64,000 nucleotides of DNA from Omphiscola glabra. Taxonomy: Eukaryota; Mollusca; Gastropoda; Lymnaeidae. Made by a program: the position numbers and the translations under genes. This document shows positions 12,980 through 48,522 of this stretch, piece by piece. Positions within the stretch are counted from its first letter, which is position 1. The number at the start of each line of letters is the position of its first letter. Under the pieces are notes generated by a model. The model was not told where the DNA came from. It did not search any database and saw only the letters and a list, made by a program, of their open reading frames with translations. The stretch is from assembly GCA_964017045.1 (NCBI GenBank), contig OZ024809.1:26404618-26468617 (forward strand), given 5' to 3'.

Positions 12980-13114
12980 CATGTTCACATTGGTTTTTTA
13001 AAAGATAGAACAAAGCAACGGCCAACGGAGCAAGAATCGCCAGCGGTACAACTGTACCAACGATCGCCTGCGTCAAGATTTCACCGTGACTTTCTGTCGG
13101 AGATGAGAGGGGAG
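12980..13114 (-). CDS. IgSF membrane protein, transmembrane exon
   Basis: A 135-base exon (acceptor ttacag, donor gtaggt; phase 1 to phase 1). It encodes a short stalk PLSSPTESHGEILTQ, then a hydrophobic helix of about 21 residues from AIVGTVVPLAILAPLAVALF to YLL, then KNQCEH. The order (Ig domain, polar stalk, hydrophobic helix, basic residue) is that of a type I membrane protein. Its phase matches the phase-1 end of the exon at 13,638-13,461, and the joined frame is open. The cytoplasmic part must lie at lower coordinates and was not identified with confidence. Confidence 0.75.
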
Positions 13115-13460
13115 CTGTAACGAAAATGGTGTTTGTGTTTAGTCATAAAGATTTTGAATGTGAAAATATTTAATTCAATATTTTAGAGATAATAGTTGGA
13201 TTTTAGTGTAAAAAAAAGTAAGGTGGTTCTGAATGATAATTCAGTAAATAATTCTACAATTTATTTTTTGTTAACAAGAAAATTGATGTGTTAGTGTTAG
13301 CCGTAAAAAAAAAGGGGTGGGGGGGGGGTGTGTCGAGTATAAGCAATGTTGAAAGTCTAAAAATATAAACAAATGACTTCGTCATAACAATTAAGATGAT
13401 TACTGTCACTTTAATAAAGTTGTAGATTGAGAGAAATAGTTTTAAAAACAGTAAACTTAC

Positions 13461-13638
13461 ACGTGATAGTGACTTTTTGAGTAATATTCACTGATTTAAT
13501 TATTAGTTTTTTTAGCAGAATGAACCCTTGGCACCTGTAAATGCCGGTGTCACTGATTTTGACTGCTTTAATGCTTAGAAAAATTTCTTTTTTGTCGCTA
13601 CGGTGGGGACTCCACCCACGAGCCGCTATCAATGGATT
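13461..13638 (-). CDS. IgSF membrane protein, Ig domain C-terminal half
   Basis: This 178-base exon starts in phase 0 after ctttcag and ends in phase 1 at gtaagt. It encodes the second half of an Ig fold. The segment KEIFLSIKAVKISDTGIYRC has the L-x-I strand E pattern followed by D-T-G-x-Y-x-C, the hallmark of strand F with the second disulfide cysteine. The exon is homologous in position and phase to 46,430-46,631 of the plus-strand gene (D-A-G-E-Y-I-C). Confidence 0.8.
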
Positions 13639-13942
13639 CTGAAAGTGAGAAAGAGAGAGAGACAGAGAGTAAGATAGAAGTGATCAACACAAATTCAATG
13701 TGTAGTCTCATGTGAATGAATTCAATAACACTTAATGCATGCATAGATAACAGCGATCTAACGTTCATTCAAAACTCAAGCAGCAGTCTGTTCATATGGT
13801 TGTTAGACAATCACACAACTGTGATTGACGTGTGAGGTTTAAAGGTCGGGAAGGGGGGTGTGGAGGGGGAAGATGCGCGTGGGGGCGTGGCGAAGGTGGT
13901 GGAGTGGGGTTCGGGGATGGAGGTGGACGTATGAAGTGAGTG
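13639..13942. other. intron of the minus-strand Ig gene
   Basis: The part next to the exon carries a purine-rich ga repeat on the plus strand, which is the pyrimidine tract of the acceptor on the minus strand. Nothing else is recognised before the 14-base array. Confidence 0.5.
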
Positions 13943-14140
13943 ATGCATGTGGGTCAATGGAGGTGGGTCAATGGAAGTGGGTCAATGGAGTTGGGTCAAT
14001 GGAGGTGGGACAATGGAGGTGGGACAATGGATGTGGGACAATGGAGGTGGGGCAATGGATATGGGGCAATGAATATGGGTCAATGGAGGTGGGGCAATGG
14101 AGGTGTGTAAATAAGGTGGGTAAATGAAGTAAGATAAATG
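13943..14140 (+). repeat. 14-bp minisatellite
   Basis: About fourteen copies of a 14-base unit of the form ggtgggtcaatgga, with gacaatgg and ggcaatgg variants, within the intron of the minus-strand Ig gene. Confidence 0.8.
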
Positions 14141-14154
14141 GAGGTGGGTAATAG

Positions 14155-14455
14155 TCTAATGTCCCACCCACTTTTTCATCGCAGATTTATTTCACCAACT
14201 ATTTCAGAAAAAAAACGATAGAAAATATTACGCACCAAACTCACGTGCGATGTTTTTTTTTAAAAAAGAATTTCATTTGTGCAGCTATCGGGAATTTTAT
14301 TCTATCTTCCCCTTGGAAAAAAAGGAACAACGATTTTTTGGGGGAAGGGGTCTGCGGCTGAAAATGTGACATCGGCACCGAGAATATGTGCCATATTCCA
14401 GATCGATTAGTGGACGGGAAGTGGGTCAACTAAACGTCTGAAGATTTTTCCAGCC
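14155..14455 (+). repeat. dispersed repeat R1, copy 2
   Basis: It matches the R1 copy at 745-1,075 in order: cccacccactttt, ttcaccaactatttcagaaa, gaaaatattacgcacc, atcgggaattttat, and a distal ggacgggaagtgggtcaa. It is non-coding. Confidence 0.65.
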
Positions 14456-14784
14456 AACCACCTGACGAAACCCTCGTTCTTACTATAAGATTGACGAGAC
14501 GTTCGACCTTACTATATAGTTGGTGTATGAGCTGTATGATCTTAAAATACTTATATTCAGCCAGCAAGGACTATCTTTGATACACCATGCCCTATCTCAT
14601 CCGATGGGCCAGTGTAACAATAACAACCAATTTCGATATACTAACGCCAACCGGATTAGTTGTCCAATACTGTTTATTCTGTAATCAAGTATCTATTCTG
14701 GATATATAAAATAATGTAGAAGTAGACAAACACACAATTCAACTCCCTGTTTAAAGGCCATCAATGCACACAACAACACTAGAA

Positions 14785-14875
14785 CTAATACGTCACTTCC
14801 CCTACACAAATACGTCACAACATTCTCACACGATATATAAAGCTAAACATATACTCTCTAACTAAACATGTTTTA
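14785..14875 (+). repeat. promoter-like repeat P1, copy 1
   Basis: Two TACGTCA (CRE-like) sites at 14,789 and 14,811 are followed by TATATAAAG at 14,834, then actctctaactaaacatg. The same order recurs at 63,848-63,975 (plus) and 58,868-58,995 (minus). It could be a fragment of an LTR or another transposon promoter. Confidence 0.45.
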
Positions 14876-15520
14876 CGTATCAACTTATCCACATTGATTT
14901 CATACCCTTGACAGCATTCACGATCAACAGCCAAGGTAATGATTGTAGTATATTATTTGTTTTAAAAAAGGTTCTGGTTAGATATCTTCAAAAGGATGTA
15001 TCAAGGGAAAAAAATTGTAAGAAAATAATTTATTTATTTTTTTAAAGGATATCCTTCTTTGTCTAGTCTAAGGAATCCTGGATGCAAAATCTTATACATG
15101 CCTTGTGGCCGTTCCTGATCATTGGGTATTTATAAAGATAAATCTAAATTAAATTATTTATTTTAAAAATTGTTTTAAGAATGCAAATATCTACGCAGCT
15201 CTACTGAAATGATTGCAAACCACAATCTTCCACTGAAAAGTCATGCGGAACTAAGAACAGGGGACACAACTTTAAATCCTTTAAACGTTGGACAACGAAC
15301 TTTGGTTTTTCTTTCCCTTTGACTAACTTGATTCATTTGGGCAGAACAACTGAGTTATCAACTTTAGAAAACAGACCCGAGACAGTCACGTATAATCTAA
15401 TCAAGTCTCATTTGAAAGGAACAAACTTAGTTACAATGTGTCTTGGCTCAAGTTATCTTACAATATTAGGACAAAAAGGAGGAGAGTTGTGAGAAATTAA
15501 ATTCAAATGAAAAAAAGTGA
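14876..15520. other. intronic DNA of the minus-strand Ig gene
   Basis: AT-rich sequence in which no exon, repeat or mobile element is recognised. Confidence 0.4.
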
Positions 15521-15541
15521 CTAGAAAAAAGTGTCACCTAC

Positions 15542-15750
15542 TGTGAAATTGGCATCAACTCCAGATTTTTCATCGAGATTTAAATCATATACCATAAGGT
15601 TAGAAAAATTGTCCTCTTGGAAGGTCCTCCGTGCAAGGGCTAACTTTATGACTACAAATGTGTCGTCTGGAAGTTTAGAGTTAAGAATCGCCACTGAGCA
15701 TTTTAGGAGCAGTTCGTCCCCTTCCTGGCACTGATCTCGTCCTATTTGAC
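15542..15750 (-). CDS. IgSF membrane protein, Ig domain N-terminal half
   Basis: A 209-base exon with acceptor aatgtag; the donor that keeps the frame is gtaggt after NFT. It runs from phase 1 to phase 0. It encodes CQEGDELLLKCSVAI, with the strand B cysteine after E-G-D-x-L-x-L-x-C, then a polar region ending GVDANFT. It pairs with 13,638-13,461 to make one Ig domain split by an intron of about 1.9 kb. An alternative donor four bases downstream (gtgaca) would break the frame. The upstream exons, including the signal peptide, were not found. Confidence 0.75.
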
Positions 15751-16079
15751 CTACATTAAGATGCAAATGAGAATAAATGTTCGAAATTAATTGTAAGAAA
15801 GTAAATTAAATAGTAGAAATTTATTATATATTTATATATATAAACACGTATTGTCTAATTCACACACCAAACGTTTTGATTTGAAATGTATAGAAAGCTT
15901 CTGTGCATTTCAATTTTACGTTTCACACAAATGCTTTTTGTGTGTTCATTTTTAAAATTTTCTTAAGCATCCATTGCTTCATATATTATAAGTACCTTAA
16001 AAATAATAATAAATTGACAAAATGTTATGTAGTTAATATAATTATATAAAACGTTGTATGTAAGTAATCCTTATATTGA
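15751..16079. other. AT-rich non-coding DNA
   Basis: Possible intron or upstream region of the minus-strand Ig gene. No feature is recognised. Confidence 0.4.
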
Positions 16080-16275
16080 TGAAAGATAAAAGTGTTCGCT
16101 TCCGCTTATCAGATGCCACTTGCATTCAGTTATCAGTCAAACCTTTCTATTGCTTCTTATGGTCAGATGTCACTTCACATGCCTTAAGTTAACAGGCACA
16201 TATCTCTTTTTCATCATACAGTCAGATGCCACTTGCTTTCAACTAACAGGCAAACATTTCTATTGCATAATAAGA
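16080..16275 (+). repeat. three imperfect copies of a ~65-bp unit
   Basis: Three diverged tandem copies share cagatgccacttgc, taacaggcaaac and tttctattgc. Confidence 0.6.
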
Positions 16276-16279
16276 ATAA

Positions 16280-16725
16280 CGTTAATAGAATGATTATAAG
16301 AATCTCATTTTAAGAATAAATTATAGGAATCAAGTTATAAAAATCAAGTTATTAAGAATCAGGTGATAGGAATCAAGTTATTAGAATCAGGTATTAAGGA
16401 TCGGGTTATAAGAATCAGGTTACAAAAGTCAAGTTGTAAGCAGGGGCGTCATTTCCGGTTCTTTAGGGGGTGGGTGCCAAAACTTGGTCGGCTTTTCAAG
16501 TTGTTTACAACTGGAGGCGCCACAGTGAATAGCAGTTTAAATAAAACCTGACCTACCCAAATGAGGTCACTGGTTATAAGAACCTTGTAATAAGAATCAA
16601 ATTTTTAGAATCAAGTTATAAGAATTAAGTTATAAGAATCAGGTTATAAGAATTGATGATAATAATCAGGTTATAAGAATCAGATTATAAGTATCGGGCG
16701 AAAATCATCAGATTATAAGAATCAG
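16280..16725 (+). repeat. degenerate ttataagaatcaggt array
   Basis: Many imperfect 13-15 base units of ttataagaatcaggt / caagtt flank the homogeneous 24-base array and reappear once at 17,248-17,275. A single unrelated block (16,438-16,570, including gcgtcatttccgg) interrupts it and may be a small insertion. Confidence 0.7.
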
Positions 16726-17262
16726 GTTTTGACGCATTATAAGAATCAGGTTTTGACGCATTATAAGAATCAGGTTTTGACGCATTATAAGAATCAGGTT
16801 TTGACGCATTATAAGAATCAGGTTTTGACGCATTATAAGAATCAGGTTTTGACGCATTATAAGAATCAGGTTTTGACGCATTATAAGAATCAGGTTTTGA
16901 CGCATTATAAGAATCAGGTTTTGACGCATTATAAGAATCAGGTTTTGACGCATTATAAGAATCAGGTTTTGACGCATTATAAGAATCAGGTTTTGACGCA
17001 TTATAAGAATCAGGTTTTGACGCATTATAAGAATCAGGTTTTGACGCATTATAAGAATCAGGTTTTGACGCATTATAAGAATCAGGTTTTGACGCATTAT
17101 AAGAATCAGGTTTTGACGCATTATAAGAATCAGGTTTTGACGCATTATAAGAATCAGGTTTTGACGCATTATAAGAATCAGGTTTTGACGCATTATAAGA
17201 ATCAGGTTTTGACGCATTATAAGAATCAGGTTTTGACGCATTATAAGAATCAGGTTATAAGA
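16726..17262 (+). repeat. 24-bp array, 22 apparently identical copies
   Basis: The unit contains ttttgacgcattataagaat and repeats 22 times without a visible substitution. It looks like an amplification of one variant unit of the surrounding degenerate array, with ttgacgc inserted. Because the period is a multiple of three, both strands have long open frames (octapeptides MRQNLILI and LTHYKNQV). There is no promoter, start context or codon evidence, so no protein is called. Confidence 0.9.
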
Positions 17263-17369
17263 GTAATGTTATAAATGTAATGAATCATTAAATGACCCCT
17301 TAGTCACATCGAATTTCTTTTAAAATATATTTTTTGACTAGTTCAAAAAACAAATTGCGAAAAAACAAG

Positions 17370-18341
17370 GGAGAGCAGGTAGTAAGTGTATGGGAGAGCA
17401 GGTGGTAGTGGCAAAGGAGAGCAGGTGGTGGTGGCAAAAGGAGAGCAGGTGGTGGTGACAAGGAAGAGCAGGTGATGGTGGCAAAGGAGAGCAGGTGGTG
17501 TGGCAAGGGAGAGTAGGTGGTGGTGGCAAGGGAGAGCAGGTGGTGTGGCAAGTGAGATTAGTTGGTGGTGGCAAGGGAGAGCAGGTAATGGTGGCAAGGG
17601 AGATCAGGTGATGGTTTCAATGGATAGCAGGTGGTGTGGCAAGGGAGAGCAAGTGGTGTGGCAAAGGAGAGCAGGTGGTGGTGGCAAGGGAGAGCAGGTG
17701 GTGGTGGCAAGGGAGAGCAGGTGGTGGTGGCAATGGAGAGCTGGTGGTGGTAAGGGATAGTAGGTGGTGGTGACAAGGGAGAGCAGGTGAGGGTGGCAAG
17801 GAGGAGCAGGTGGTGGTGGCAAGGGAAAACAGGTAGTTTTGGCAAGGGAGAGCAGGTGGTGGTGGCAAGGGAGAGCAGGTGGTGGTAGCAAAGGAGATCA
17901 GGTGGTGGTGGCAAGGGAGAGCAGGTAGTGGTGGCATGGGGGAGCTTGTTGAGGTGGCAAGGGGGAGCAGTTGGTGGTGGTGGCAAGGGAGACCAGGTGG
18001 TGGTGGCAAAGGAGAGCAGGTGGTGTTGCAAGGGAGAGCAGGTGGTGGTGGCAAGGTAGAGCAGGTGGTGGTGGCAAGGTACAGCAGGTGGTGGTGGCAT
18101 AGGAGAGCAGGTGGTGTTGCAAGGGAGAGCAGGTGGTGGTGGCAAGCGAGAGCAGGTGGTGGTGGCAAAGGAGAGTAGATGTTGGTGGCAAGGGAGAGCA
18201 AGTGGTGATGACAAGCGAGCGCAGGTGGTGGTGGTAAGGGAGAGCAAGTAGTGTGGCAAGGGATAGTAGATGGTTGTGGCAAGGGAGAGTAGGTGGTGGT
18301 AAGGGAGAGCAGGTGATTGTGGTAAAGGAGAGTAGGTGCTC
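17370..18341 (+). repeat. 23-bp GT-rich minisatellite, left part
   Basis: About 40 copies of a 23-base unit contain gggagagcaggtggtggtgg. Units vary in length (20-26) by loss or gain of ggt triplets. The array resumes at 18,893 after an inserted LINE fragment. Long open frames on both strands are repeat artefacts. Confidence 0.85.
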
Positions 18342-18892
18342 TCAGAAGAGCATCGACTGGTTGGAGGCAGTACAGCGAAGGGCAGCACGCTTTGTCCTGA
18401 ACCGCTACAGGAATACCTCTAGTGTTGGCAGCATGCTGGAAACACTGGGCTGGTCACTATTGGAGGAACGACGACGACAGTCCAGGCTCTCCATGAATTA
18501 CAAGATATATAATGGGCTAGTCCACTGCTCTGGCATTAAACAGAAACTCGTCCCTTTCCCCCATAGACAGCGACGAGGCCATGACAGTCAGTTCCGGCTC
18601 ATACCAGCGAGAAGCCAGTATAGGAACTGCTCATTCCTACCAAAGACAATCAGGGACTGGAACAAGCTTCCAAAAGGAACAGTTGAGGCGACAACACTTG
18701 ACTCATTTGCGTCTATTGCCTCAGGCCTTCCAACCCCTAGTGCATGATACCCTCAAACAGTTACTCTTGTGACCAGTGAAATATCCTCATCAATACCAGG
18801 CACAGAGACATTGCAAATCCCATCTACATTCATAGGAGCCATAATGATCAATAAATTGATCGTGGGACCTTAATATAAAGAAGAAGACGAAG
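18342..18892 (+). pseudogene. LINE C-terminal fragment inserted in a minisatellite
   Basis: The open frame reads DWLEAVQRRAARFVLNRY, then LGWSLLEERRRQSRLSMNYKI, and later SFLPKTIRDWNKLP, to a TGA at 18,747. This is the conserved C-terminal region of CR1/jockey-type reverse transcriptases (LE-x-VQR-x-A-A-R-F, L-x-W-x-x-L-x-x-R-R, R-T-I-x-D-W-N-x-L-P). A 3' UTR of about 145 bases follows with atgatcaataaattgatcgt and a gaagaagac tail. The frame is open over about 400 bases, so the insertion may be fairly recent. It is strongly 5'-truncated. Confidence 0.8.
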
Positions 18893-19015
18893 GTGGTTGA
18901 TGTTATGGGAGAGTAGGTGGTTTGCAAGTGAGAGTAGATGGTTGTGTTAAAGAATAGTAAGGGGTGATGGCAAGGGAGAGTAGGTGCTGTTGCTGGAAAT
19001 AGGGAGAAGGTGGGA
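18893..19015 (+). repeat. 23-bp GT-rich minisatellite, right part
   Basis: It continues the array interrupted by the LINE, with more diverged units (gggagagtaggtg, gtgagagtagatggttg). Confidence 0.7.
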
Positions 19016-19940
19016 GTGGAATTTTTCAAAATATATAATTGAAACAGGCATTTCCAAGCTATATAAATAATAAGCTTTTGGTGGCCGATTAATTGGTAAT
19101 AGGCAAGATAAGACAGGTAGATAATTTGACAATCGATAAATTTGATAAGTAGTGCAACACACTATTATTCTGAGAATGTTTTAAATGAGGTAATGTGAGC
19201 CGTCGCGTGTGCCCTGCAACTCCTGAGGCTGAGGCTGCAGAGTGCCTCGGATATGTATGGCAACCTGATATGTAAGAGGACCCAAAGTTAGGATGTGAAA
19301 TACTGAACAGAATAGACTACAGGTGGACAACCCCCCCCCCTAATCAATCAACGGTACTGTGGGTAGCACAGGATGGCACAAAGTAAAATTATATGGCCAC
19401 AAAGGAGTGACAGACCCAAACAATTGAAGAACCTCTGTAACGACCTGTAAATTAAGTAGTCATATTTGCTTCTCTAGGCATCGCGTGTCTGACCATGCAA
19501 CCATAATTTGACCTGGGTCAGACAACAATGAGAACTCGTGAACTGTAATCACATAAAATATTTCATCATTCTGAGCTGGTTGTGCTGAGCAGCTAGGACA
19601 CATTTGTAAAAGTCGATAGCCGCTCTAAAACCGAATTGCGAAAACCAATCAAAAACCGATTGCTACCAAAGCACTATATTAAGATCACTAGTTGTAATAA
19701 CAATATGCTCATGTTATCATATATCTGTTATCTAACCAGACGCCATCTGTAAGAAGATTGCCATCAGTATTAAAGTACGATCCATTTGAACAAAACTCTG
19801 AAATCAGAATGCCAAATAGAGCCGTCGAAACACAGAAGAATGTCAGTTTGTTTTATTTATGTAATTAGTTAAAATGATTAAGCTCATTCCACAGCGCAGT
19901 GTTCATTGTTTTTCTGGTGTCTCTCCTACGTCCTAATCGC
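19016..19940. other. unassigned non-coding DNA
   Basis: No gene or repeat is recognised. A poly-C run of about 10 lies at 19,330. Confidence 0.35.
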
Positions 19941-19942
19941 TG

Positions 19943-20014
19943 ATTGGTTGAAATTTTAACGTATGGGGTTGTGCTAACTATGGAAATTTCCATTACGTCA
20001 TGATCTATAAATAA
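19943..20014 (+). promoter_or_regulatory. CCAAT / CRE / TATA cluster
   Basis: An inverted CCAAT box (ATTGG, 19,943), a CRE-like TTACGTCATGA (19,993-20,003) and TATAAATAA (20,006-20,014) lie in one 72-base stretch on the plus strand. No coding sequence follows on this strand, so it may be an orphan or transposon promoter. Confidence 0.3.
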
Positions 20015-20099
20015 TATTCATGTAGGTCGTATCTGGTTGTTTTTAAAAAATTGATTTTTTTAAAGTACATCTATAAATTTCGTTACACATTTTGATATA

Positions 20100-20640
20100 T
20101 TATTACCAGGACTTTGCAAAGGGGATGGGGAAAGAGGGTACACACCGGTCGCTAACAGCCAAGAGGCACCAAAGTCTTCTTCAGATGGCATCTTAGTGAA
20201 TTCATCATCATGGACGCTACAGCCCACGAAAGACCCTTGCCTGCTCCAACACTGCTTTCCATTTGGATCGATCCACGGCTCTCCGCCTTCATGTGCGAAC
20301 CCCCAGCTAGTTTAAGTCCTTCTCTACATCGTCGATCCATCTTAGTCTTGGTCGACCGGTGAGCCGTCTGCCCCTAGGGTTCTGCCTGTAGATCCCTTTT
20401 GATTCTCTGCAATCCGGCATCCTCTCAATGTGTCGTATTCAACATAGTCTGCTTTTTTTTTATTTTGCCACTATGGGTGGGTCTTCGTACAATTGATTTA
20501 GCTCTTGGATTGTACGGATTCTTCAAACATCATTGTCTATCACCGGTCATATATTTTCCTGAGGAGTTTCCTCTCCCGTGTATTATAAGCAGGTTCTCTA
20601 CTTTTCAGGTAAGGGACCAAGTCTCACTAGCGTAATTTAC
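20100..20640 (-). pseudogene. LINE C-terminal remnant
   Basis: On the minus strand, the frame ending near 20,320 reads MPDCRESKGIYRQNPRGRR and then TGRPRLRWIDDVEKDL before a stop, with LGVR and RRAVDRSKWKAVLEQAR beyond. Upstream (to 20,640) SETWSLT-like and IVRRPTHSGKI segments appear in other frames. This is the C-terminus of an RTE-like endonuclease/reverse transcriptase (R-x-T-G-R-P-R-L-R-W-x-D-D-V). Several stops and frameshifts show it is dead. Confidence 0.65.
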
Positions 20641-20739
20641 GACAGGTCTTACGTTAGTGGTGCATAGTGACTGCTTTTGTCCCGTTTTGCTTCATAGTAG
20701 TTTTTGTAGGCTGAGATAAGAACGATATCTTGCTTTCAT

Positions 20740-21245
20740 CCTTTATTTTACCTCTGACATTATTTCATTGTACTCATTTATGGTCACCCCTAGTATCGCG
20801 GCACACATCGATTAAGTGCTCTACTGTTTCGTTATATAGTTTACAGGGTCGGTAGTTAAGATTATTATGTGAGTCGAGTTGATATAGCTAGCTGCGTGTC
20901 TGACAGTGTTCCGTTGGCATCTGTTGGCATATGTGTAATTAGGGTTCGTTCGCCCACGTGGAAGTTGCCACCAGGGGTCGCTCTCACTAGGTCAAGGCAA
21001 GATGCGTTAGAGCTGACGTGCCTTGTCACTGTCTGCCCACTCGTTGAACCACTCTTCCTAAATGTGTATTTTAAGCAAGGCCTTGACCCACATTTGAGTC
21101 ATGACATGTCTAGAGTAGAGAGGGACAAGTTCTTGTTTAATGCTGGAACAGTGGACCAGACAATTTTTTATCCTGCACATCATGGAGAGACTGGATTATC
21201 ATGGCAGCTCATCTCCCCCTCAGTTAACCGACGAAGATCCTGTTG
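20740..21245 (-). pseudogene. probable LINE remnant (RNase H-to-C-terminal region)
   Basis: Minus-strand frames contain EEWFNEWADSDKARQL and, after a frame change, RPCKLYNETVEHLIDVCR, a degenerate C-x-x-C/H knuckle like that near the end of some LINE ORF2 proteins. It lies on the same strand as the remnant at 20.1-20.6 kb but may be another element. The plus-strand open frame over the same bases (20,869-21,264) looks like a shadow. Confidence 0.4.
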
Positions 21246-22944: not shown

Positions 22945-22949
22945 CCATT

Positions 22950-24890: not shown

Positions 24891-24904
24891 CATGGTCAAA
24901 ACCC

Positions 24905-28102: not shown

Positions 28103-28163
28103 ATGCCATATTTGAAAAGCAAAATAATGACGTTTGTCTTCATTGCTGCTATTCTATCAATGG
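28103..28163 (+). CDS. secreted or membrane IgSF protein, signal-peptide exon
   Basis: The exon encodes MPYLKSKIMTFVFIAAILSM plus the first base of the next codon, and ends in a strong donor GGgtaagtg (phase 1). A basic N-region followed by a hydrophobic core (FVFIAAIL) is a typical signal peptide. An internal ATG at 28,127 would give a shorter form that still has the core. The upstream ATG at 28,092 runs into a stop after seven codons. The next exon with compatible phase is 38,529-38,615, so the first intron would be 10.4 kb. That linkage is inference. Confidence 0.6.
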
Positions 28164-31238: not shown

Positions 31239-31279
31239 TAGCGTGTACCCGGCATCCATACAATGCCACTCAAGAAAGA

Positions 31280-32530
31280 AAGTGTTTGCGTTTTAATTAT
31301 GTTTCTTGGAGAGCTTTTAAATACACAATGTTTTTGTTTTTCCGCCTGGTGCATACACGAATAAATTAGAAGGTTTTCTGACGCGAGAGCAGGCCACATA
31401 CAGTTGTCCATTGGAGAAGCACGGTTTTTTTTTTTGGGCATAATTGTTGGAATCATTGGGATGCGTGGCAGCAGTTTATCTTCTTCTTTAAATTTCCCAT
31501 TTAAAATAGTAGCTTCGATTATATTGTTCATCATGTTTTTCACTGAAAGCTTGGTGCCGTTGCAAAGTGGTGAATTTATGTTTCGTAAAAGAATGATAGG
31601 CACGCCAATTTTCAGTGTTAAAACGTGTGACGGGATGCCTGGCAAGCCAAGAGATTTCAAGAATTCCGTTATATAATTGACAACTTCGTCATGATTCAAT
31701 ACAGTATCGATGGACTTGTACGTTGTCGTTTCGCCTGGGATTTCATTTTGGATGCTTAAGGTGATGGCATTGACATCGTTGTTTTAGGCTGCTAATATAG
31801 CACGTGCACTGAGCCATTGATGATTTTTGTAATTTTTGCGATATTCGGAAAAACTCTATGAATAAATTCGTCGATGGTTGCTGTAATTTTACAGAAACTT
31901 GTTGGAAAAGTTAAACATTGTGTGGATTCATCGATTGCCGTTTTCCCATTCCCAATGTCCAACAATTGTTTTGCAAAACGTTCAACGGATGCATCATTGT
32001 GTAGTTGTACACGCATATTTGTCTTTAAAGTCAATTTCTGTACATGTCGCCATAAAACTGATGATTTTAGACATGCATTTAATTCATCGGCAGCTGTTGA
32101 ACGTGGTATAACTGGAAGAGTTTGTCGAAAATCACCAGATAATAAAATAAGTGCGCCACCAAAGAGCTGTTCATTTCCTCGATAATCTTTAAGTGTTCGA
32201 TGCAGCACTTCCAATGCTTTTTTGTGCGCCATAGTACATTCGTCCCATATAATGAGTTGACATTATTGGAGTACTTTACCCATTCCAGAATATTTATTTA
32301 TATTGCATGTTGGTGTCTCGGTCATTTGCATATTCAATGGCAATTTCAGTCCTGAATGCGCTGTTCGTCCACCCTCCAAAAGAGTTGCTGCAATTCCAGA
32401 TGATGCGATTGCCAATGCAATATTTTATCGAGATCGTATGGTTACCAAAATAATTGAAATTTGGAACGTTTTGCCTGTGCCTCCGGGAGCATCTAGGAAA
32501 TATAATCCATCACTTTGACTTGCAATTGCA
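31280..32530 (-). pseudogene. Helitron PIF1-like helicase, near-intact core
   Basis: In minus-strand order: FLDAPGGTGKT (Walker A, about 32,465-32,500), LLEGGRTAHSGLKLPLN, IIWDECTMAHKKALEV (Walker B, D-E), ALILLSGDFRQTLPVIPR (motif III), LKTNMRVQ, and after several frame changes GQLYVACSRVRKPSNLFVYA (motif VI) near 31,350-31,410. This is the superfamily 1B helicase of Helitrons, which unwinds DNA during rolling-circle transposition. The frame is broken by an in-frame stop after Walker A, one before Walker B and frameshifts after 31,800. Confidence 0.85.
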
Positions 32531-36895: not shown

Positions 36896-37111
36896 ATGAA
36901 ATTTCACAATTTCTTCCACACACTTTAACGATTGATCAACCCATGCAGTAGCTCTGTTTTCTGTATTTTTATAGCTTAAATAAGAAAATAATAATTAGGG
37001 CCCACGGCCCTTAGCGGTATATTGAAAAATGGTTGTACTAATTTAGAAACTTTAGCGGGCGTGCGCACAGCAACACACAAAAGTGTTATCGCAACGCGGA
37101 CGAATGGTATA

Positions 37112-37430
37112 GGAGACTGCAACTTCCATTGTCACCCAGAGTTATCGTTCATACCGGGGAGTAAAAAGAACGTACACAAAGATGGCTGCTCACATTTAAA
37201 GATGGCTGCTCACATGGCAAAAACAGCATTTGAGACCATGCGAGTTGAAGAATTAAAGACATTTTTACGGGAATTGCATCAGCCGGTATCTGGAAATAAA
37301 GCAGAACTTGTAGATCGTACACGCGGCTGTGTAGCGTTGCGAATTTGTGGGGGGAAAAACCTATGTATCTGAGACATTTTTTCAAATTTCTAGGCGAAAA
37401 AGATTAACAAGGGCAAAAACTTCTGCTTCT
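37112..37430 (+). pseudogene. captured SAP-like domain fragment
   Basis: Within the Helitron derivative, on the opposite strand, an open frame encodes MRVEELKTFLRELHQPVSG followed by NKAELVDRTRG. This matches the SAP motif pattern (L-K-x-x-E-L-K-x-x-L-R-x-x-x-x-x-x-S-G-x-K-A-x-L-V-x-R), a helix-loop-helix that binds AT-rich DNA. The preceding sequence has a duplicated aagatggctgctcacat. The frame stops at 37,370. It has no Helitron-like sequence around it, so capture of a host or transposon gene piece is the likeliest origin. Confidence 0.55.
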
Positions 37431-39700: not shown

Positions 39701-40025
39701 GAAGCTGGGACACATTTCCCTGACCAACAATTTTCTTCAAATCTGTGGTCCATCCTGAATATCCATATGGCAAAAAGCAAAGTGTAGCACATTGTATCAT
39801 AGTCTTCTCTGGATGGTTATATGTTTTTAAAAATGCGTGTTTCGAATGCACCATTTGCACTGTAAAAAAAAAAAAAGCAGCAAATTCTCCTCTGACAGTG
39901 AGAGCTTTTATAGTGATGGAGAGCGCAATATTTACCTTTTTAACCAAGTATATCATGCTATATTCAATCGGTGTTTGTTGAGACCCGCTGGTCCTCACTT
40001 GGCTCACACACCCCCACCCATCGTT

Positions 40026-41105
40026 TTGCCACGTGTTATGACTCAATTAGGCTAGGTCATACACAGCTGAATTGCCATAAACAATGATAATTTTCCAGTC
40101 AACCAGGAACGTAGTTAGCTTAGTGAAACGCAACCCATGTCCAGAGCGTAATGAACCAAACGGTCAGCGTATGAAACGATGTTTGACCCAGAAATTTGCA
40201 TCTAGTGTTTGCATGCGAGATGCAGGTATAAATAGTGAGCGCAGCGCGCTATTCAGTCTCTCTCTTTCATGTAATTGAAATACAAGCAAGAGCCTGGCCA
40301 AGGATAATTGCGGTTAGAGTTTGTCTTGCCAAGAGTTATTGTGTTAGTAATAGTAGTATTGTTAATTGTTAGTTTCATATGTTTATAATGTTCGTATTTT
40401 TGTTAGTAGGACATGTTAGGATGGTAGCTAGTTATTCAGTCACTGTTAGAGTATTACGTTAGATTATGATTAATTTTTAATAACGTGATGGGATTGTAAT
40501 CCCTAGTTGTAGTTTATGTGTTGTATTTGTTATTCTCTTTACAGCCAGTTAAGTTAGGTTCAGTTAGCATAGGATTAGATAGGATATCAAATAGCAGAGT
40601 AAAGCAGTACATAGAAGAGTTGTGTTGAGTCGATTATAAAGTAGAAGAGAGCCCATTAGAACTCATTACGCAGTAAAGTATCAGTATACGTTCAGAGGTT
40701 AGTGCAGTCTAACTCTGACGCAATATTAATAGAGGCATATTGTAAGACGGAAGGCATCGCTCTAAAATTAGCAGAAGTAGGTAGAAGACGAAGCAACAAA
40801 GATGGCGTGTTTGTATACACGTAGAAGCACTGGGCGTGACTGGCATTTCATCACCCCTGCACCTGGGGGAGAGAAGGGAGCAGATCGGAGAACCTTTGTT
40901 GTGTGTTGTGGAGCCTGCCGTGTGTAGCTGACCCTGAGAAGAATCCAGACCCTAATCAGAGACGTTTGATCCATCGCACCAGTCCAGTCTCAGATATCAT
41001 TAGTAACCAAACTGTATCAATTAATTTCTTGTGTATGCGTATGTATTTCATGAAGTATTTTTTTTTTTTAGTAATTAAATATATATTTCTGGGTTGAACC
41101 ACCTG
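40026..41105 (+). mobile_element. LTR-like unit with TATA-initiator promoter
   Basis: TATAAATA at 40,227-40,234 is followed by the initiator TCAGTC with its A 28 bases further on, a textbook core promoter. A transcript-like region of about 840 bases without open frame follows, ending in an A/T-rich part (aattaaatatatatttctgg) near 41,090. The left edge tgttatgact at 40,026 is a guess. No partner LTR or coding part was found. A promoter of a non-coding RNA gene is the alternative. Confidence 0.35.
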
Positions 41106-41277
41106 TGTTCTTAAGTCTTAAGTAAAATATGAGAGAGAGAGAGCGAGCGAGAGTGCCTTAGTAGCGTTTGTGAGCGAGGAGTAATTTATTATAACTGTTG
41201 AAAGTAATCATTCCCTAGACATAGTAATACTAATCGACGTAGCGCTAGGGACCAAACAATATATATCATCATCATCA

Positions 41278-41866
41278 TCATCATGTCCCTTAGTTGTTGG
41301 ACCGTTGGGGCGCCACAGATGACATGAAAACTATCCTTCTCCATTCCTCTCTGTCTTCTGCACTGCGTACAGCATCGCCTAGTTTTAATCCCGTCCACTC
41401 TTTGATGTTATCTTCCCATCTTTTTCTTTGTCTTCCTCTTCTTCTCCCTCCTCTAGTTGTGTCCTGCATGATTTCTTTGTCGAGCCCTTGTTTCATTGTT
41501 AAGTGGCCAAACCATTCAAGTTTTCGCTTTTTTTACCAACACCACGAGGTCATCGTACTGCCCAATTGCTTTACGAATCATTTCTTTCACTTGTTCATTT
41601 GTGATGGGGTCTCTATAGCAGATGCGAAGAATGCTTCTGAAACATCTCATCTCTATCGCCTTTATTTTCCTTTCGAGTTTTGCTGTTAATGTCCAGGACT
41701 CACAGGCATACAAGAAAATGGAGAGGAATAGTGAGCGCATCAGCCTGATTTTGGTGCTGGGGGCTATATTTTTGTGGTTCCATATTTTCTTGAGCCTCTT
41801 TATGTATATTGCAATAGAAATCCTCAACAGCGTTCGGTTTTCCTGATTTATCTTTAGCATTTCCTC
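41278..41866 (-). pseudogene. RTE-like LINE C-terminus with (GAT)n tail
   Basis: The minus strand reads IKRLKKIWNHKNIAPSTKIR, SLFLSIFLYACESWTLTAKL, EMRCFRSILRICYRDPITNE, then after one base lost or gained in an A run near 41,530, RKLEWFGHLTMKQGL, GRQRKRWEDNIKEWTGL and REEWRRIVF. This is the full C-terminal region of an RTE-like reverse transcriptase. The 3' end is a (gat)n tail at 41,266-41,284 following cccaacggtccaac. Apart from the single frameshift the frame is open, so it is relatively young. Confidence 0.8.
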
Positions 41867-41867
41867 T

Positions 41868-42140
41868 GGTTCTGGTAGTGTACGTTGCTGCATCCATATA
41901 GTAGCATATGTGCAACGGTTGGGGAAACGATGCTGCCATCCTAACGGCTCCAGGGCAGCCTGGGAGCTTTCGATAGATGTCGAATTCACGGCGGCATTGT
42001 CCAGGTGGTCACAAGCGATTATTGTGCGTGGGGAGAATGATTGTTTATGTTGCACTGTGTTACTCCGAGGAACAATGAAGCTTTTGATATTGTTCCGGGT
42101 GTAATTGCTCATTGGTTCAAATTGGATCATCTCATAGCCA
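41868..42140 (-). pseudogene. second copy of the LINE 3' end seen at 8.1 kb
   Basis: The minus strand matches 8,140-8,370 closely: PRSNTVQHKQSF, PRTIIA, then the 3' UTR with cgttgcacatatgctac and the tail ccagaaccag. It is joined head to tail to the RTE-like fragment at 41,866, so the combined open frame is a chance fusion of two elements. Confidence 0.7.
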
Positions 42141-42186
42141 CAGACGTTACCAATACATTCCATAATTGTACCGAAATTGTTTGGCT

Positions 42187-42216
42187 GAGATGAGGGGGGG
42201 GGGGGGGGGGGGGTTC
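42187..42216. repeat. poly-G tract
   Basis: A run of about 21-22 G on the plus strand, just to the right of the LINE fragment. Confidence 0.8.
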
Positions 42217-42224
42217 CTATAAAA

Positions 42225-42760
42225 TCATTCCGTTGATAAAGTTAAAAAATTTTCCATTAAAATTAGTTTAAAATTGCCATTGATATAGATTTTAAAATTA
42301 TAAAACTTTCTGGAAAAGTCTAGACTGGCCCTGAATGGATTGGATAGTATTAATTTTAAACCCACTGATATTTCAGTATGAAAGGGTAATGCTACTTAGC
42401 AAGGCCTTGATCCATCAATTCACATAGAAGATATAGAGTTGTCTGTAGGTCTATTGGTATTTATATAGCTTATATAAGGAAAATGGAAATGGATATGAGG
42501 AGTTAAGCACCCTTCGGTATTTGAATATGAATAATTAATTGTATGTCTACTAAGTTTGGTCAAGATTAATTTATTCATGTAGGAGTATTTGTTGCATATT
42601 TTATTTACACAGTTCATATCAGAATAAAAACGATTTTGTGCCCCCCTCCGGCTCCAAACGAAATGTTATAAAAAGTTCATTACTTAAAAATATATGTGCC
42701 AAGTTTAGTCAAGAGCCATCAATCTATATAAAAGCCTTTGTGGAACAAACAAACAAACAA
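42225..42760. repeat. dispersed repeat R2, copy 1
   Basis: A diverged interspersed repeat shared with 43,610-43,980, 44,750-45,480 and 45,690-45,850. Landmarks in order: ttaaaattngtttaaaa, gccatngatatag, a ttctggaa block, ttttaaaccca, gatccatcaattcacat, and a distal ccggc-caaacg-aatgttataaa with gtcaagatccatc. It ends at tctatataaaagcctttgtg near 42,724. It has no coding content. Confidence 0.6.
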
Positions 42761-42840
42761 ACAAAGCCACAAGCCCACACATGTTCACTTATTTATATGA
42801 TATGATTGAGTGATGACGAACATATTTCTGAATCTTTCAG

Positions 42841-43034
42841 GAACATGTCAAGACATAATTAGCCAGCAAGAAGTTGAGGAGGGGGGACAAGTTTTCGTCA
42901 CGTGTTCTGCAAGGTCCCTGCGACTTCCCGATTCGGAAGCTGTCCTTCTGGAACTGTTTCACCAGGGAAGGCGGGAGACAGTGGCTCGTATGCTGGCATC
43001 TTATTCTGTCAGAAGTCATGAAAAAAATTTTACG
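42841..43034 (+). CDS. IgSF protein, Ig domain 1, N-terminal half
   Basis: A 194-base exon, phase 1 to phase 0 (acceptor aatctttcag, donor gtatat). It encodes TCQDIISQQEVEEGGQVFVT followed by C, with strand B pattern E-E-G-G-x-V-x-V-T-C, then a polar region ending SHEKNFT. The ending NFT at the donor is the same as in the minus-strand gene exon (DANFT), supporting common descent. It needs the C-terminal half at 46,430-46,631. Confidence 0.8.
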
Positions 43035-43154
43035 GTATATTTGATCGTCTTGATTCAGAGTTTAAAATGTTTTTAAAAATTCACGTAAAACTAATACATC
43101 TTCTACAAATTTGGGTGCATGTCCAACCTGAACAATCTCTTATATAACAATGTA

Positions 43155-43600
43155 CTAGCAAATATACCCGGCGTTTCCCGGGATTGCATTCGGGCAAACA
43201 ACAACTTCTACGGCATTTTAATTAACATTAAAATTAAGCGCCAAGTAAAACAAAAACACCCCGATAGTACAAAAATATAAAAGAATTAAATTGTTTCCTA
43301 TAAGAACACATTTAAAAAACGCGTGTAAACATTTCGTCCCACGATAGGATCCGATTTCCAAAGAAGGATACCATATTCCAATAGGATCCAGTTGCTGTTG
43401 GAATCCCGATCCTACTGGGATCGCATTCCCATTGGGATACCGATCCCGATTGGCATCCCGTTTCCAAATGGGATCACATATCCCATTGGGTTTCCGGCTC
43501 CATTTAGATACCGATTCCGATTGGGATCCCGTTCATTAATGGGATCCCATATTCCATTGTTATCCCGGCTCTATTGGGCTCCCGATCCCAATTGCCATTA
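43155..43600 (-). mobile_element. Helitron-like 3' end with gggatcccg module
   Basis: On the minus strand this ends ACGCCGGGTATATTTGCTAG (to 43,155) with the hairpin CCCGG-n6-CCGGG just before and a T after: a Helitron 3' terminus. To the right (43,340-43,600) is a degenerate array of gggatcccgatt-type units. The 5' end was not located, so the right limit is approximate. Confidence 0.5.
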
Positions 43601-43609
43601 AAAATCATT

Positions 43610-43980
43610 CAGATAAACAATGAAGTTAAAATTTATAAATTTGTCCCATTAAAATTGGTTTAAAAACGCCATAGATATAGCTTTTTTAAAATGATCGTAA
43701 TTTCTGGAATATTCTATATAGGATATCGTTAGTTTTAAATCCACCGGTATTTTAATACAGACAATGAAGGATATTGCTATCAAGCTAGGTCTAAATCCAC
43801 CAATTCACATATAACCTATAGTGTTTTCTAAGCTAAGCCCCCGCCCTCAAACGAAATGTTGTTAAAGTTCTCAACCTCTTAAGAGTTCCTTCTGGATAAT
43901 GATAGATATATGTGCCAAGTTTGGTCATGATCCATAAATCCATGTTAAAGCCTTTGTGGAACAAACCCACAAAGAAATTT
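43610..43980. repeat. dispersed repeat R2, copy 2
   Basis: Same landmarks as copy 1, ending with gcctttgtggaacaaac just before the next Helitron-like 3' end at 43,984. Confidence 0.6.
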
Positions 43981-43983
43981 TCA

Positions 43984-44480
43984 CTAGCGGATGCACACGG
44001 CATTATGCCGGGATAACATTCGGAACGAAGGAACTTCTACAGTCTACAGCCTTATAATAATTTCGAACTCTGTGGGCTCCCAATCCTGTCGGTATCCCGC
44101 TCACGTTAGTATACCAGTTCCCGGTGAGATTCCGATCCCTCTGGATCCCAATACCGGTATGATCCTAATCCCGTCGGTACTCTGATCTCGTTGGTATCTC
44201 GATACCAGTGGGATATCGATACCGGCGGATCCCGATAGCTGTCGGATCCCCATACCGGTAGGGTACCAATCTCGGTAGGTTTGAGTTATCCTATAGGCTC
44301 CCTATCCGAGTGGGTTACTTATCCCATTATGATGTCGATCCCGTTAGTATCCCATTTCCTGGTGGGATCCTCTTCTCTGATGGGATCCCATTACATTATA
44401 GGATCACGATCCCGGTTTGATCCAGTTACCCGATTGGATCGCGTTACCGTTGGTTTCAATTGACTGCTTGATCTCGTTAA
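43984..44480 (-). mobile_element. second Helitron-like 3' end with gggatcccg module
   Basis: On the minus strand it ends GTGTGCATCCGCTAG (to 43,984) after the hairpin CGGCA-TAA-TGCCG, with T following. The first 60 bases resemble the element at 43,155 (aacttctac). At 44,060-44,480 it holds a degenerate array of gatcccggt / gggatccc units. The 5' end was not located. Confidence 0.5.
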
Positions 44481-44749
44481 CGTTACTTTAAGCTATTATA
44501 TCCCTTTATATATCCCCGTAGAACTATTTAGAAATTTATGGAACATTCTAGATTAAATTTTTAAACCTCCTCAAAATGTGTAAAAATAAATTTCTAAGTA
44601 TTTATTTTTGGACCTCGAAAAATCATACAACCAAATGCGTTGTTATAGCTATAATACATTTAAGCTTAAACAGGGGACCCAGTGGGGGCCCATTCCCTAA
44701 TTTTAACGAATCGGTTTTGTCTGAAATGGGGAACCCCCAAAAAATCATT

Positions 44750-45850
44750 TAGATAATTTATGGATTAAAATTAAAAATTTGTCCGATTAAGATCGGTTTA
44801 AACATGCCACAGATTAAGCTTTTTAAATTTATCGAATTTTCTTGAGAATTCTAGACTTGATATTCTTGGTTTTAAATCCACCGATATTTCAATACGGATA
44901 CGTGTATTGATACCACGCTAGGCCTATATCCATCAATTCACATATAAACTATAGTGTTGTCTAAGCCTAATGATATTTACATAGATTAAATAAGGAAAAA
45001 TGAAATGGGGCCTCCGGCCCCACATGGATGGATATTATGAGTTCGGTGACACTTCGAATTTTAATTTGGTTAATCAAGTGTATGTGTACTAAGTTTGGTC
45101 AAGATTCATCTATTCATGTAGGAGTATTAAGCATATTGATATTTATATAGCTTAATAAGAAAAAATGAAATGGGGCCCCCGGAACCAGAGGGATGGATAT
45201 TATGAGTTCAGTACCCTTTGGTATTTGAATTGATAATCAAGTGTATGTGTACTATGTTTGTTCAAGATCCATCTACTCATGTAGGAGTATTTGTTGTTAA
45301 TCTTTATTTATAAAGCTTATATAGGAAAAAACGACAGTTTAGGCCCCCGGCCCCAAACGGAATGTTATAAAATATTCATAATCCCTTAAGAGATCCTTCC
45401 GGATAATGATGGGTATATGTGCCAAAGTTGGTCAAGATCCATCCATCCATGTAGGAGTATTAAGCCTATTGACCTATAGAGCTTTCTGGAATATTCTAGA
45501 TTAAATGTATTATCGTCCTGGAACTGTGTAAAAACTGTATTTTCTAAGTAAATATGCTTCGAATACGAAAAATTATACAACTAAAGGCATTTCTACAACA
45601 ACTATAGTAAATTTAATTTAAAAGAGAGACCCTATGGACCCATTCCATAATTGTAACGAATTAGCTTTGCCTGAGATAGGTCGCCCTATAATAATCAGAA
45701 AGATAAATAATACAGATACATTTAATTTTGTTTCCCATTTAAATCTAATGAATAATGCCATAGATATAGCGTTTTAAAATTATCGAACTTTCATAAAAAT
45801 TCTAGATTTGATATTATTAGTTTTAAATACACCGATATTTCATGTTGTTA
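44750..45850. repeat. dispersed repeat R2, copies 3 and 4
   Basis: 44,750-45,480 carries the full series of R2 landmarks, with the distal part (gggccnccggccc, atgagttc, gtgtatgtgtactaagtttg) itself repeated two to three times. 45,690-45,850 is another partial copy. The interval between them has no other feature. Confidence 0.55.
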
Positions 45851-46084
45851 GACATGATATAACCAAAATTCCCAGCAGAGGATGTAAACAGTATGACGGA
45901 GTTACTTACTTGAAATGGGGTGGGAAGAGCTGAGTGATAATTTGTGAATGAGGAGTGCTTCCGTTTTGTCAACATTAAGCTTCAACTTGCTGAGTATCCT
46001 CCGTGACTTGACATCACCAATGCTTTTCCGCAAATTCCGGACAGCGGAATCGACAAGAGAGTGATGGGTATGCCTGTATAGCTG

Positions 46085-46295
46085 CTGTCACCCGCGAATG
46101 ACTGGCTCTCCATTGATGATGTGTCCATTGATGATGTGTCCATTGATGATGTGTCCATTGATGATGTGTCCATTGATGATGTGTCCATTGATGACTTGTT
46201 AATTGATGATGTGTCTCTTGATGATGTGTCTCTTGATTATGTATTTATTTATGATGTGTCTCTTGATGATGTGTCCATTGGTGATGTGTCTGTCG
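46085..46295 (+). repeat. 15-bp minisatellite
   Basis: About twelve copies of a 15-base unit gatgatgtgtccatt, the right half being more diverged. It lies 135 bases before the next Ig exon. Confidence 0.8.
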
Positions 46296-46429
46296 AATGA
46301 ATTATCATGGAACGTGCTTTTGTGAGAACCTATCTGTCAAATTGAGAAGTCGATTTAAAGACCATTGATAAATAAAATTTATGTGATAAAAATGGTACAA
46401 TTTATATAATTTCAACTATTTTCCATAAG

Positions 46430-46631
46430 ATTGCATCGGATCCTATCAGAAACTGGAAAATATCACGTTCTCAGAGATGGAGCAGACAATCAGAATCTTC
46501 CAATACATTAATCAGCAGACTTCAGTTAGCCATTTATAACTTCACACCGGCTGATGCTGGTGAATACATTTGTTACGCATTGGACCCGTGGACACATGCC
46601 TGCAGGTGTGTTGGAACTGTGCGAGTGAAAG
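46430..46631 (+). CDS. IgSF protein, Ig domain 1, C-terminal half
   Basis: A 202-base exon, phase 0 to phase 1 (acceptor ttttccataag, donor Ggtacg). The encoded strand E to F region reads LISRLQLAIYNFTPADAGEY and then ICYALD. D-A-G-E-Y-I-C is the canonical Ig strand F with the second disulfide cysteine. The end is ACRCVGTVRVK. N-F-T is a potential N-glycosylation site, and two extra cysteines (A-C-R-C) near the G strand are unusual. Confidence 0.85.
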
Positions 46632-47029
46632 GTACGATTTGTCATTCTTAAACATGTGTAGTAATTGAGGCATCAGGACCCCGAACGCCATAGAACTGTA
46701 ACAACTTGGATTTTAGACATGATAATGTCTAATGATGTCCGCCGTTTTTTGTTTTGGTATCCGAATGTCCAGAACGTTGTTCTCGTAATTTGTAACCCGA
46801 ACAATTTTTTTGAAAAAATTCGAGACCCGGGCATTTTAAATTTTCAAAATTAAAAACAATACTCTTGAAACCATTTTGCGCTAACGGATATCCAAAGATA
46901 CAAATACAATAAACTAAAACGATAAAAGGATTTGTCCGCTTGATTAATTCTGATTCAAGCTGTATAATATATATATATATGCGCTTGAAAGAAAAAAGAA
47001 AATGTTTTATAGTTTTTTATTAATCCCTT
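46632..47029. other. intronic non-coding DNA
   Basis: It holds a short AT repeat at 46,965-46,980. No exon or element is recognised. Confidence 0.4.
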
Positions 47030-48349
47030 CAGAGTAATTATGCTTAAATCAATTGACAGAGATTATGCTTTAATATATTAACAGGGATCATGTTTTAATT
47101 CATTGGTAGGGTCATGTTTTAATCCATTGACATGGATCACGTTTAATCCATTGATAGAGATTATATTTACATCCATAAACAGGGATCATGCTTTAATCCA
47201 TTTAGAGGGATCATGTTTTAAACAATTGAAAGGAATGATGTTTTAATCCATCGACGTGGATCCTGCTTTAATCCATTGACAGGAAACATGTTTTAATCCA
47301 ATGACAGGGATCATGTTTTAATCCATTTAGAGGGATCATGTTTTAAAACATTGACAGGAATGATGCTTTAATCCATTGACTTGGATCATGTTTTAATAAA
47401 TTAGAAGATTCATGCTTTAATCCATTAACAAAGCTCATGTTTAAATCCATTGACAGAGATCATATTTAAATTCTTTAACATGGATCATGTTTTAAACTTT
47501 TAGAGGGATCATGTTTTAAACCATTGACAGGAATGATGTTTTAATCCATTGAGAGGATTGATGTTTTGTTTCCATTGACTGGGATCATGTTAATCCATTG
47601 AGAAGGATGTTGTTTTAATCCAAAGACAGGGATCATAGCTTAATCCAATCACAAGGATGATTTGTTAATCAATTGACAGGGATCATGTATAAATCCATTG
47701 AAAGAAATTATGTTTTAATTTATTGACTATATTTATGTTTTAATCCATTGACAGGGAACATGTTCAATCCATTGACAGGGATTAAGTTTTAATCCAAATT
47801 AGTGATCATATTTTAATTCATTTTTTGTTGACCATGTTTTAATCCATTGACAGGGATCATATTTAAATCCATTGAGATGGATTATGTTTCAATCCATTGA
47901 ATGAGATCATGTTTTAATCTAATGACAAGGATCATGTGTTAATACATTGATGGTGATCATGTTTTAATCCATTGTCAAGGATCAGGTTTAAACCCATTTA
48001 TAGGGATCATGTTTTAATCCATTTACATGGATCATGTTTCAATCTATTGAGAAGGATCATGTTTTAATCAATTGACTGGGAGCATGTTTTAATCCATTGA
48101 AATGATTGATTTTTTTGTTTCCTTTGACTGGAATCATGTTTAATCCATTGACCTGGTTCATGTTTAATCCATTGAAAAAGATTTTGTTTTAATCTATTGA
48201 AAGGGATCATGTTTTAATCCAAAGACAGGGATCTTATTTAAATTCAATGACAGGAATCATTGTTAATTAATTGACATTTATCATGTTTCAATCCATGGAA
48301 AGAAATGTTTTAATCCATTGACTGTGATTATGTTTTAATCCATTGCCAG
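47030..48349 (+). repeat. 25-bp degenerate array ending at an exon
   Basis: About 50 units of roughly 25 bases with core tttaatccattgacagggat. Units are strongly diverged (acaggg, agaggg, acatgg and so on). The last unit reads tttaatccattgccag and forms the 3' splice site of the exon at 48,350; that exon's first bases GGAACATG continue the unit (compare gacagggaacatg at 47,750). Confidence 0.85.
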
Positions 48350-48522
48350 GGAACATGTCAACGGTGAACAAAACTATTTTGGAAGAAGGGGAAAGCTTTA
48401 CGGTCACCTGCACCACGTACACAATGAATCTGTTTCCATTTACAGTGCCCACCAGACATATCCTTGCTATAAGTCTTATTACTGATAAGATGGCACTTAT
48501 TGACACAATTACTAATTATAAG
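48350..48522 (+). CDS. IgSF protein, Ig domain 2, N-terminal half
   Basis: A 173-base exon, phase 1 to phase 0, donor AAGgtaata. It encodes NMSTVNKTILEEGESFTVTC with the strand B pattern E-E-G-E-S-F-T-V-T-C, matching the first Ig half of the gene, then a hydrophobic stretch HILAISLI and the end DTITNYK. The matching C-terminal half should follow on the plus strand, but none was found before the window ends. It may lie beyond the satellite or be lost. Confidence 0.75.

What the first reader, a model, noticed from the sequence alone, without database searches (positions are those of the whole stretch)
12980..48522. Two divergent Ig-superfamily genes with the same exon architecture
Seen: five Ig half-exons, three on plus and two on minus, all fit one scheme: N-half phase 1 to 0, C-half phase 0 to 1. 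N-halves share E-G/E-x-x-x-V-x-C near the start, and two of the three end in N-F-T at the donor. The minus gene continues into a transmembrane exon; the plus gene starts with a signal peptide. Known: split-Ig exons of this kind build Ig arrays in many IgSF genes, and gastropods have expanded secreted Ig-lectin (FREP-type) families. Inference: this may be part of a cluster of paired secreted or membrane Ig immune-type receptors. No lectin or fibrinogen domain is visible, so the FREP link is open.
Basis: partly seen in the sequence, partly recalled or inferred. Interest (0 to 1): 0.75.

Follow-up and report, generated by a model that had tools for sequence, protein, structure and literature searches.

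The report
Split-exon Ig genes in a snail
The stretch holds parts of two back-to-back immunoglobulin-domain genes, probably of a freshwater snail; the larger one runs beyond the window, has at least three Ig domains and no lectin domain that could be found, and its middle domain changes unusually fast, as in proteins that track a changing partner.

Summary
The plus gene is only half inside the window: the missing half of Ig2 lies at 74590-74806 and a third Ig at 75310-86640. An unnamed Lymnaea stagnalis protein has the same sequence order across three of the five predicted junctions. Ig1 has matches at six other loci on contigs C17, C2, C4 and C19. Between two C2 duplicates Ig2 has 4.4 times the amino-acid-changing divergence of Ig1 at similar silent divergence; Ig2 is also the fast domain against Lymnaea. 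None of the 74 fibrinogen matches listed for this genome lies on C17, and no lectin family was found in the 13.9 kb after Ig3 on the coding strand, so the FREP reading fails its defining test. No further Ig half-exon was recognised in 264 kb. The minus gene is a weakly related Ig plus membrane-span protein. Immune function is inferred, not shown.

The parts
12980..13114 (-). Minus gene: membrane-span exon, phase 1 in, phase 1 out (PLSSPTESHGEILTQAIVGTVVPLAILAPLAVALFYLLKNQCEH)
   Evidence: reading frame and AG/GT seen; hydrophobic stretch read by eye
13461..13638 (-). Minus gene: Ig C-half exon, phase 0 to 1, motif DTGIYRC
   Evidence: best non-self hit of the Ig2 C-half profile among 6094 ORFs, E 0.11; Pfam Ig models below cut-off
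15542..15750 (-). Minus gene: Ig N-half exon, phase 1 to 0, motif EGDELLLKC, ends ANFT at the donor
   Evidence: best non-self hit of the Ig1 N-half profile, E 0.82, but not in the top eight of the pooled N profile
28103..28163 (+). Plus gene: candidate signal-peptide exon MPYLKSKIMTFVFIAAILSM, phase-1 donor
   Evidence: only plus-strand candidate before N1 with donor score 5 or more; not supported by homology
42841..43034 (+). Plus gene: Ig1 N-half exon, phase 1 to 0, ends KNFT at the donor
   Evidence: four further genome matches, 44-83% identity
46430..46631 (+). Plus gene: Ig1 C-half exon, phase 0 to 1, motif DAGEYIC
   Evidence: six further genome matches, 38-87% identity; N1+C1 over the Pfam ig cut-off, 26.5 against 21.8 bits
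48350..48522 (+). Plus gene: Ig2 N-half exon, phase 1 to 0, fast-evolving in its second part. The gene goes on outside the window: Ig2 C half 74590-74806, Ig3 N half 75310-75404, Ig3 C half 86370-86640 (window numbering continued)

Best explanation
The plus gene encodes an extracellular protein of at least three Ig domains, each built from two half-exons (1 to 0, 0 to 1), spread over about 44 kb from N1 to the last exon found (58 kb if the signal exon at 28103 belongs to it). It is one of a small dispersed family in this genome with a relative in Lymnaea stagnalis. Shown: anatomy, paralogues, conserved Ig1 and Ig3, fast Ig2. Inferred: Ig1 and Ig3 serve as framework or partner-binding domains, and Ig2, most of all its region after the first cysteine, meets a changing ligand, most likely a non-self surface; the protein is secreted or surface-bound (no membrane span recognised so far). 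The minus gene is a separate Ig-plus-membrane-span receptor, distantly related in its Ig domain, that could act as a cell-bound sensor; nothing shows that the two work together.
For: Exon frames, splice sites and phases. Chance control. Six paralogous loci for Ig1. Lymnaea protein P0001 runs through the junctions Ig2N/Ig2C, Ig2C/Ig3N and Ig3N/Ig3C. Spliced product over the cut-off of five Pfam Ig families. C2 duplicates A and B: Ig1 20.8 of 308.3 non-synonymous sites changed, Ig2 102.7 of 343, Fisher p 6e-15, silent sites 18.2 of 84.7 and 25.3 of 89, p 0.38. Against Lymnaea: Ig2 N tail 11 of 32 identical, Ig2 C 39 of 66, Ig3 N 26 of 32, Ig3 C 71 of 90.
Against: No expression or splicing data for this species. 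Ig2 as a whole does not show more non-synonymous than silent change between A and B (0.30 against 0.28, p 0.79), so relaxed constraint explains most of it. Between the window gene and B the Ig2 C half has a low ratio, 0.19, with silent sites near saturation. The C terminus was not found. The kinship of the minus gene is weak. Fast evolution is not specific to immunity.
Confidence: 0.55

Rival explanations
1. The plus gene is a FREP or other VIgL gene (Ig plus fibrinogen, C-type lectin or galectin) whose lectin exons were missed.
For: Snail host, Ig domains at the N end, weakly Ig-like V/I type sequence; FREPs have one or two IgSF domains (passages of PMC7588048). The genome does hold many fibrinogen matches, mostly on contig C14.
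Against: 0 of 74 listed fibrinogen matches on C17; no lectin family in three coding-strand frames from 86640 to 100500; three Ig domains rather than one or two; Lymnaea model ends shortly after Ig3; an ABC-transporter match on the other strand at about 100580-100852 limits the room. The search list is a lower bound and split exons can escape Pfam.
Confidence: 0.1
2. Ordinary cell-adhesion or neural IgSF protein under relaxed constraint in Ig2, without immune role.
For: Best matches among solved structures are titin, cell recognition molecule and other general Ig proteins; Ig2 change in A/B is near the silent rate.
Against: Only one database relative among 1973 and 5265 candidates, unlike conserved adhesion proteins; lineage duplications; the second part of the Ig2 N half (codons 31-70) changes more than alignable non-coding DNA between A and B (39 of 94 against 955 of 4452, a comparison chosen after looking).
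Confidence: 0.2
3. A fast-evolving reproductive or self-recognition protein (gamete, seminal or allorecognition) rather than a defence protein.
For: Same evolutionary pattern would be expected; nothing in the sequence decides (inference).
Against: No direct evidence either way.
Confidence: 0.15
4. The two genes form a paired unit: a membrane receptor and a secreted partner from one ancestral Ig gene, sharing a control region between them.
For: Divergent orientation; the minus Ig halves rank first after self for the Ig2C and Ig1N profiles.
Against: The pooled N profile does not find the minus N half and E-values are 0.1 or worse; at least 12 kb with Helitron-like remains lies between them; whether the other loci carry a minus-type neighbour was not tested.
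Confidence: 0.1

Closest known systems
Unnamed Ig-like protein of Lymnaea stagnalis (P0001, 233 aa)
   Same: 64% identity over 59% of the query; same order Ig2 tail, Ig2 C half, Ig3 N half, Ig3 C half across the predicted junctions
   Different: The model lacks Ig1 and the start of Ig2 and ends VNASETEVTHE after Ig3; that ending was not found here
FREPs and other VIgLs of gastropods
   Same: Snail IgSF proteins with N-terminal V-type Ig domains (passages of PMC7588048 and PMC12074976)
   Different: No fibrinogen or lectin domain found, three Ig domains, other contig than the fibrinogen matches. FREP exon phases were not compared: the DNA could not be fetched
Single-pass diverse transmembrane genes of Biomphalaria (PTC1/PTC2 and similar, some with Ig)
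   Same: One membrane span and, in some members, an Ig domain (passages of PMC10875847); resembles the minus gene in outline
   Different: No sequence relationship tested; the minus gene has no database relative at E 1 or better among 155 candidates
Molluscan defence molecule of Lymnaea (recalled: secreted, several Ig domains)
   Same: Multi-Ig secreted snail protein (recalled; only titles and abstract openings seen)
   Different: Sequence not compared

Membership tests
Immunoglobulin superfamily (plus gene) | Match to a curated Ig family over its cut-off | tested here: met
   Spliced 384-aa product over cut-off for Ig_3, ig, I-set, V-set, Ig_2
Immunoglobulin superfamily (minus gene) | Match to a curated Ig family over its cut-off | tested here: inconclusive
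   Best 16.9 bits against a cut-off of 30; motif, phases and profile ranks speak for it
FREP | C-terminal fibrinogen domain | tested here: not met
   0 of 74 listed genome matches on C17; none in coding-strand frames 86640-100500
FREP | One or two N-terminal IgSF domains | tested here: not met
   Three Ig domains found
FREP | Signal peptide | tested here: inconclusive
   Candidate exon 28103-28163 only
CREP/GREP (C-type lectin or galectin VIgL) | Lectin domain downstream of Ig | tested here: not met
   No lectin family among Pfam matches in three coding-strand frames 86640-100500; split exons could be missed
FREP | Ig exon phases alike | not tested
Biomphalaria PTC-type transmembrane receptors (minus gene) | Sequence homology to PTC genes | not tested
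   No PTC sequence at hand; one search found no relative

The most novel reading that the evidence does not exclude
A snail family of Ig-only recognition proteins, without lectin domain, in which a conserved Ig1 and Ig3 hold a hypervariable Ig2 whose region after the first cysteine is under diversifying selection: a germline-diversified variable Ig receptor lineage parallel to FREPs, with a membrane-bound Ig relative encoded next to it.
Probability: 0.3. Interest if true: 0.65.

Novelty: new member of a known kind. Interest (0 to 1): 0.42.

Why it matters
Snail immune recognition is mostly discussed through Ig-lectin hybrids. A dispersed Ig-only family with one domain changing several times faster than its neighbours is a concrete, testable candidate for a lectin-free recognition system, and shows how half-exons scattered over tens of kilobases with minisatellites between them hide such genes from annotation: only one partial relative turned up in the protein collection searched.

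Tried and rejected
FREP reading: rejected after the genome search for PF00147 and Pfam scans after Ig3. Local cluster: not seen in 264 kb. C terminus: search for the Lymnaea ending and for membrane-span exons gave nothing convincing. Structure prediction of P0001 without an alignment failed (mean pLDDT 33); no fold search was made. Minus gene: no protein relative, no cytoplasmic or signal exon found; the Bflower and Fibrinogen_BP matches are below cut-off and, I infer, come from tandem repeats. Rfam: no match in the window. Genome searches with Ig3 C half, Ig2 C half and the minus C half did not complete, so copy numbers of Ig2, Ig3 and of the minus gene are unknown, and the species was not identified.
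Full report
Setting. The only protein relative found is from the pond snail Lymnaea stagnalis, so I take the animal to be a freshwater snail; the species was not identified.

The observation. In one search I looked at 24 half-exons (11 N, 13 C) from the two window genes and the paralogous loci; for 22 of 24 the expected phase pair is in the printed list, and for the other two (N2 donor and C1 acceptor of locus A) the expected site is visible in the printed sequence but scored below my print limits. A rule built on motif, phase and splice sites finds exactly the five in the window and one more C half in 264 kb; 60 Markov resamplings gave a mean of 0.03 N (maximum 1) and no C halves. The rule was tuned after seeing the exons and does not find Ig3.

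The plus gene beyond the window. Joining 100 kb on each side showed the second half of Ig2 at 74590-74806. A paralogue on C2 (locus B) led to a third Ig, whose halves lie at 75310-75404 and 86370-86640 in continued window numbering, again 1 to 0 and 0 to 1. A 7-kb array of a 20-base repeat (49010-56129) sits in the intron that splits Ig2. The spliced product (384 aa without signal peptide) passes the cut-off of five Pfam Ig families. Lymnaea protein P0001 (233 aa) runs through three of the five predicted junctions with matching residues on both sides; whether that model rests on transcripts is unknown to me. The signal exon is a guess (28103-28163), and the last exon was not found: no Pfam lectin, fibrinogen or other domain over cut-off in the three coding-strand frames from 86640 to 100500, no convincing membrane-span exon, and an ABC-transporter match on the opposite strand at about 100580-100852 limits the room.

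Family. Ig1 N half matches four other places (83, 52, 51 and 44% identity), Ig1 C half six (87 to 38%): C17 at 29.6 Mb, C2 at 24.8, 25.74 and 25.88 Mb, C4 at 41.9 Mb and C19 at 5.4 Mb. The tool states that such counts are lower bounds. In the protein collection only P0001 was found, with the single sequence (1 of 1973 candidates) and with a six-row profile (1 of 5265); sensitivity is limited to relatives sharing short words.

Evolution. Between the C2 duplicates A and B, Ig1 has 20.8 of 308.3 non-synonymous sites changed and Ig2 102.7 of 343 (Fisher p 6e-15), while silent change is 18.2 of 84.7 and 25.3 of 89 (p 0.38). Against Lymnaea the identities are 11 of 32 (Ig2 N tail), 39 of 66 (Ig2 C), 26 of 32 (Ig3 N) and 71 of 90 (Ig3 C). 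So Ig2 is the fast domain in two independent comparisons. Whether this is selection for change is open. Ig2 as a whole changes at the silent rate (0.30 against 0.28, p 0.79). Codons 31-70 of the Ig2 N half reach 39 of 94 against 955 of 4452 for alignable non-coding DNA (p 1e-5), but I chose that split after looking, silent change in the same codons is also raised (7.8 of 26.2), the non-coding rate is biased low because only alignable stretches count, and I used 10 of the 14 alignment rows, dropping four that contain exons. Between the window gene and B, where silent sites are near saturation, the Ig2 C half has the highest non-synonymous distance of the five exons compared (0.56) but a low ratio (0.19); Ig2 N was not compared there.

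The minus gene. Its Ig halves and membrane-span exon are in frame and in phase, but Pfam Ig models stay below cut-off (16.9 of 30 bits) and no relative was found (0 of 155 candidates at E 1). Profiles of Ig2 C halves and Ig1 N halves each rank it first after the plus gene among 6094 ORFs of 264 kb, with E 0.11 and 0.82; the pooled C profile also ranks it next (0.099), whereas the pooled N profile, the Ig2 N profile and the Ig1 C profile do not favour it. I read it as a distant relative. A pairwise comparison points the same way: minus C half against Ig2 C of locus B, E 0.007 in a 20-kb target.

FREP question. [quoted passage not shown] Here the count is three and the fibrinogen domain is not found; of the 74 genome matches to PF00147 listed, most lie on C14 and none on C17. 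Common descent of the Ig domains with FREPs stays open because the C14 Ig exons could not be fetched and were not compared.

Literature. Seven library searches; passages only were seen of PMC7588048, PMC10875847, PMC12074976, PMC7919325 and PMC5349689. None of those passages describes this gene family; that is not a claim that it is unpublished.

Verdict. A sound observation of ordinary building blocks (split Ig exons) that belong to an apparently undescribed, lineage-limited Ig family with one fast domain. Immune function is the most likely reading but rests on pattern alone.

Noticed in passing
window 49010-56129: Array of about 357 copies of a 20-base unit with strong G over C skew (0.57-0.59 between 50 and 56 kb), inside the intron that splits Ig2.
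   Followed up: partly
window 31241-32262, minus strand: PIF1-like helicase fragments, as in Helitron transposons (PF05970, PF21530); the Helitron label is from general knowledge.
   Followed up: no
window 36995-37369, plus strand: SAP domain (PF02037, 34 bits) in a 125-aa ORF.
   Followed up: no
G000 contig C14, about 13.9-14.5, 17.7-21.4 and 25.3-26.1 Mb: Most of the 74 fibrinogen-domain matches of this genome lie here, many as two exons split near profile position 88: probable FReD/FREP arrays.
   Followed up: no
G000 C2:25743971 and C2:25875069: Two recent duplicates of the three-Ig gene 131 kb apart, with alignable introns and a fast-diverging Ig2.
   Followed up: yes
window coordinates -64125 to -56120 (upstream flank): About 8 kb of a tandem repeat with a 34-base step, seen as repeated ORFs on the minus strand.
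   Followed up: no
L009:6580-6852, minus strand (window numbering 100580-100852): ABC transporter membrane region (PF00664, E 7.9e-14): neighbouring gene on the opposite strand.
   Followed up: no
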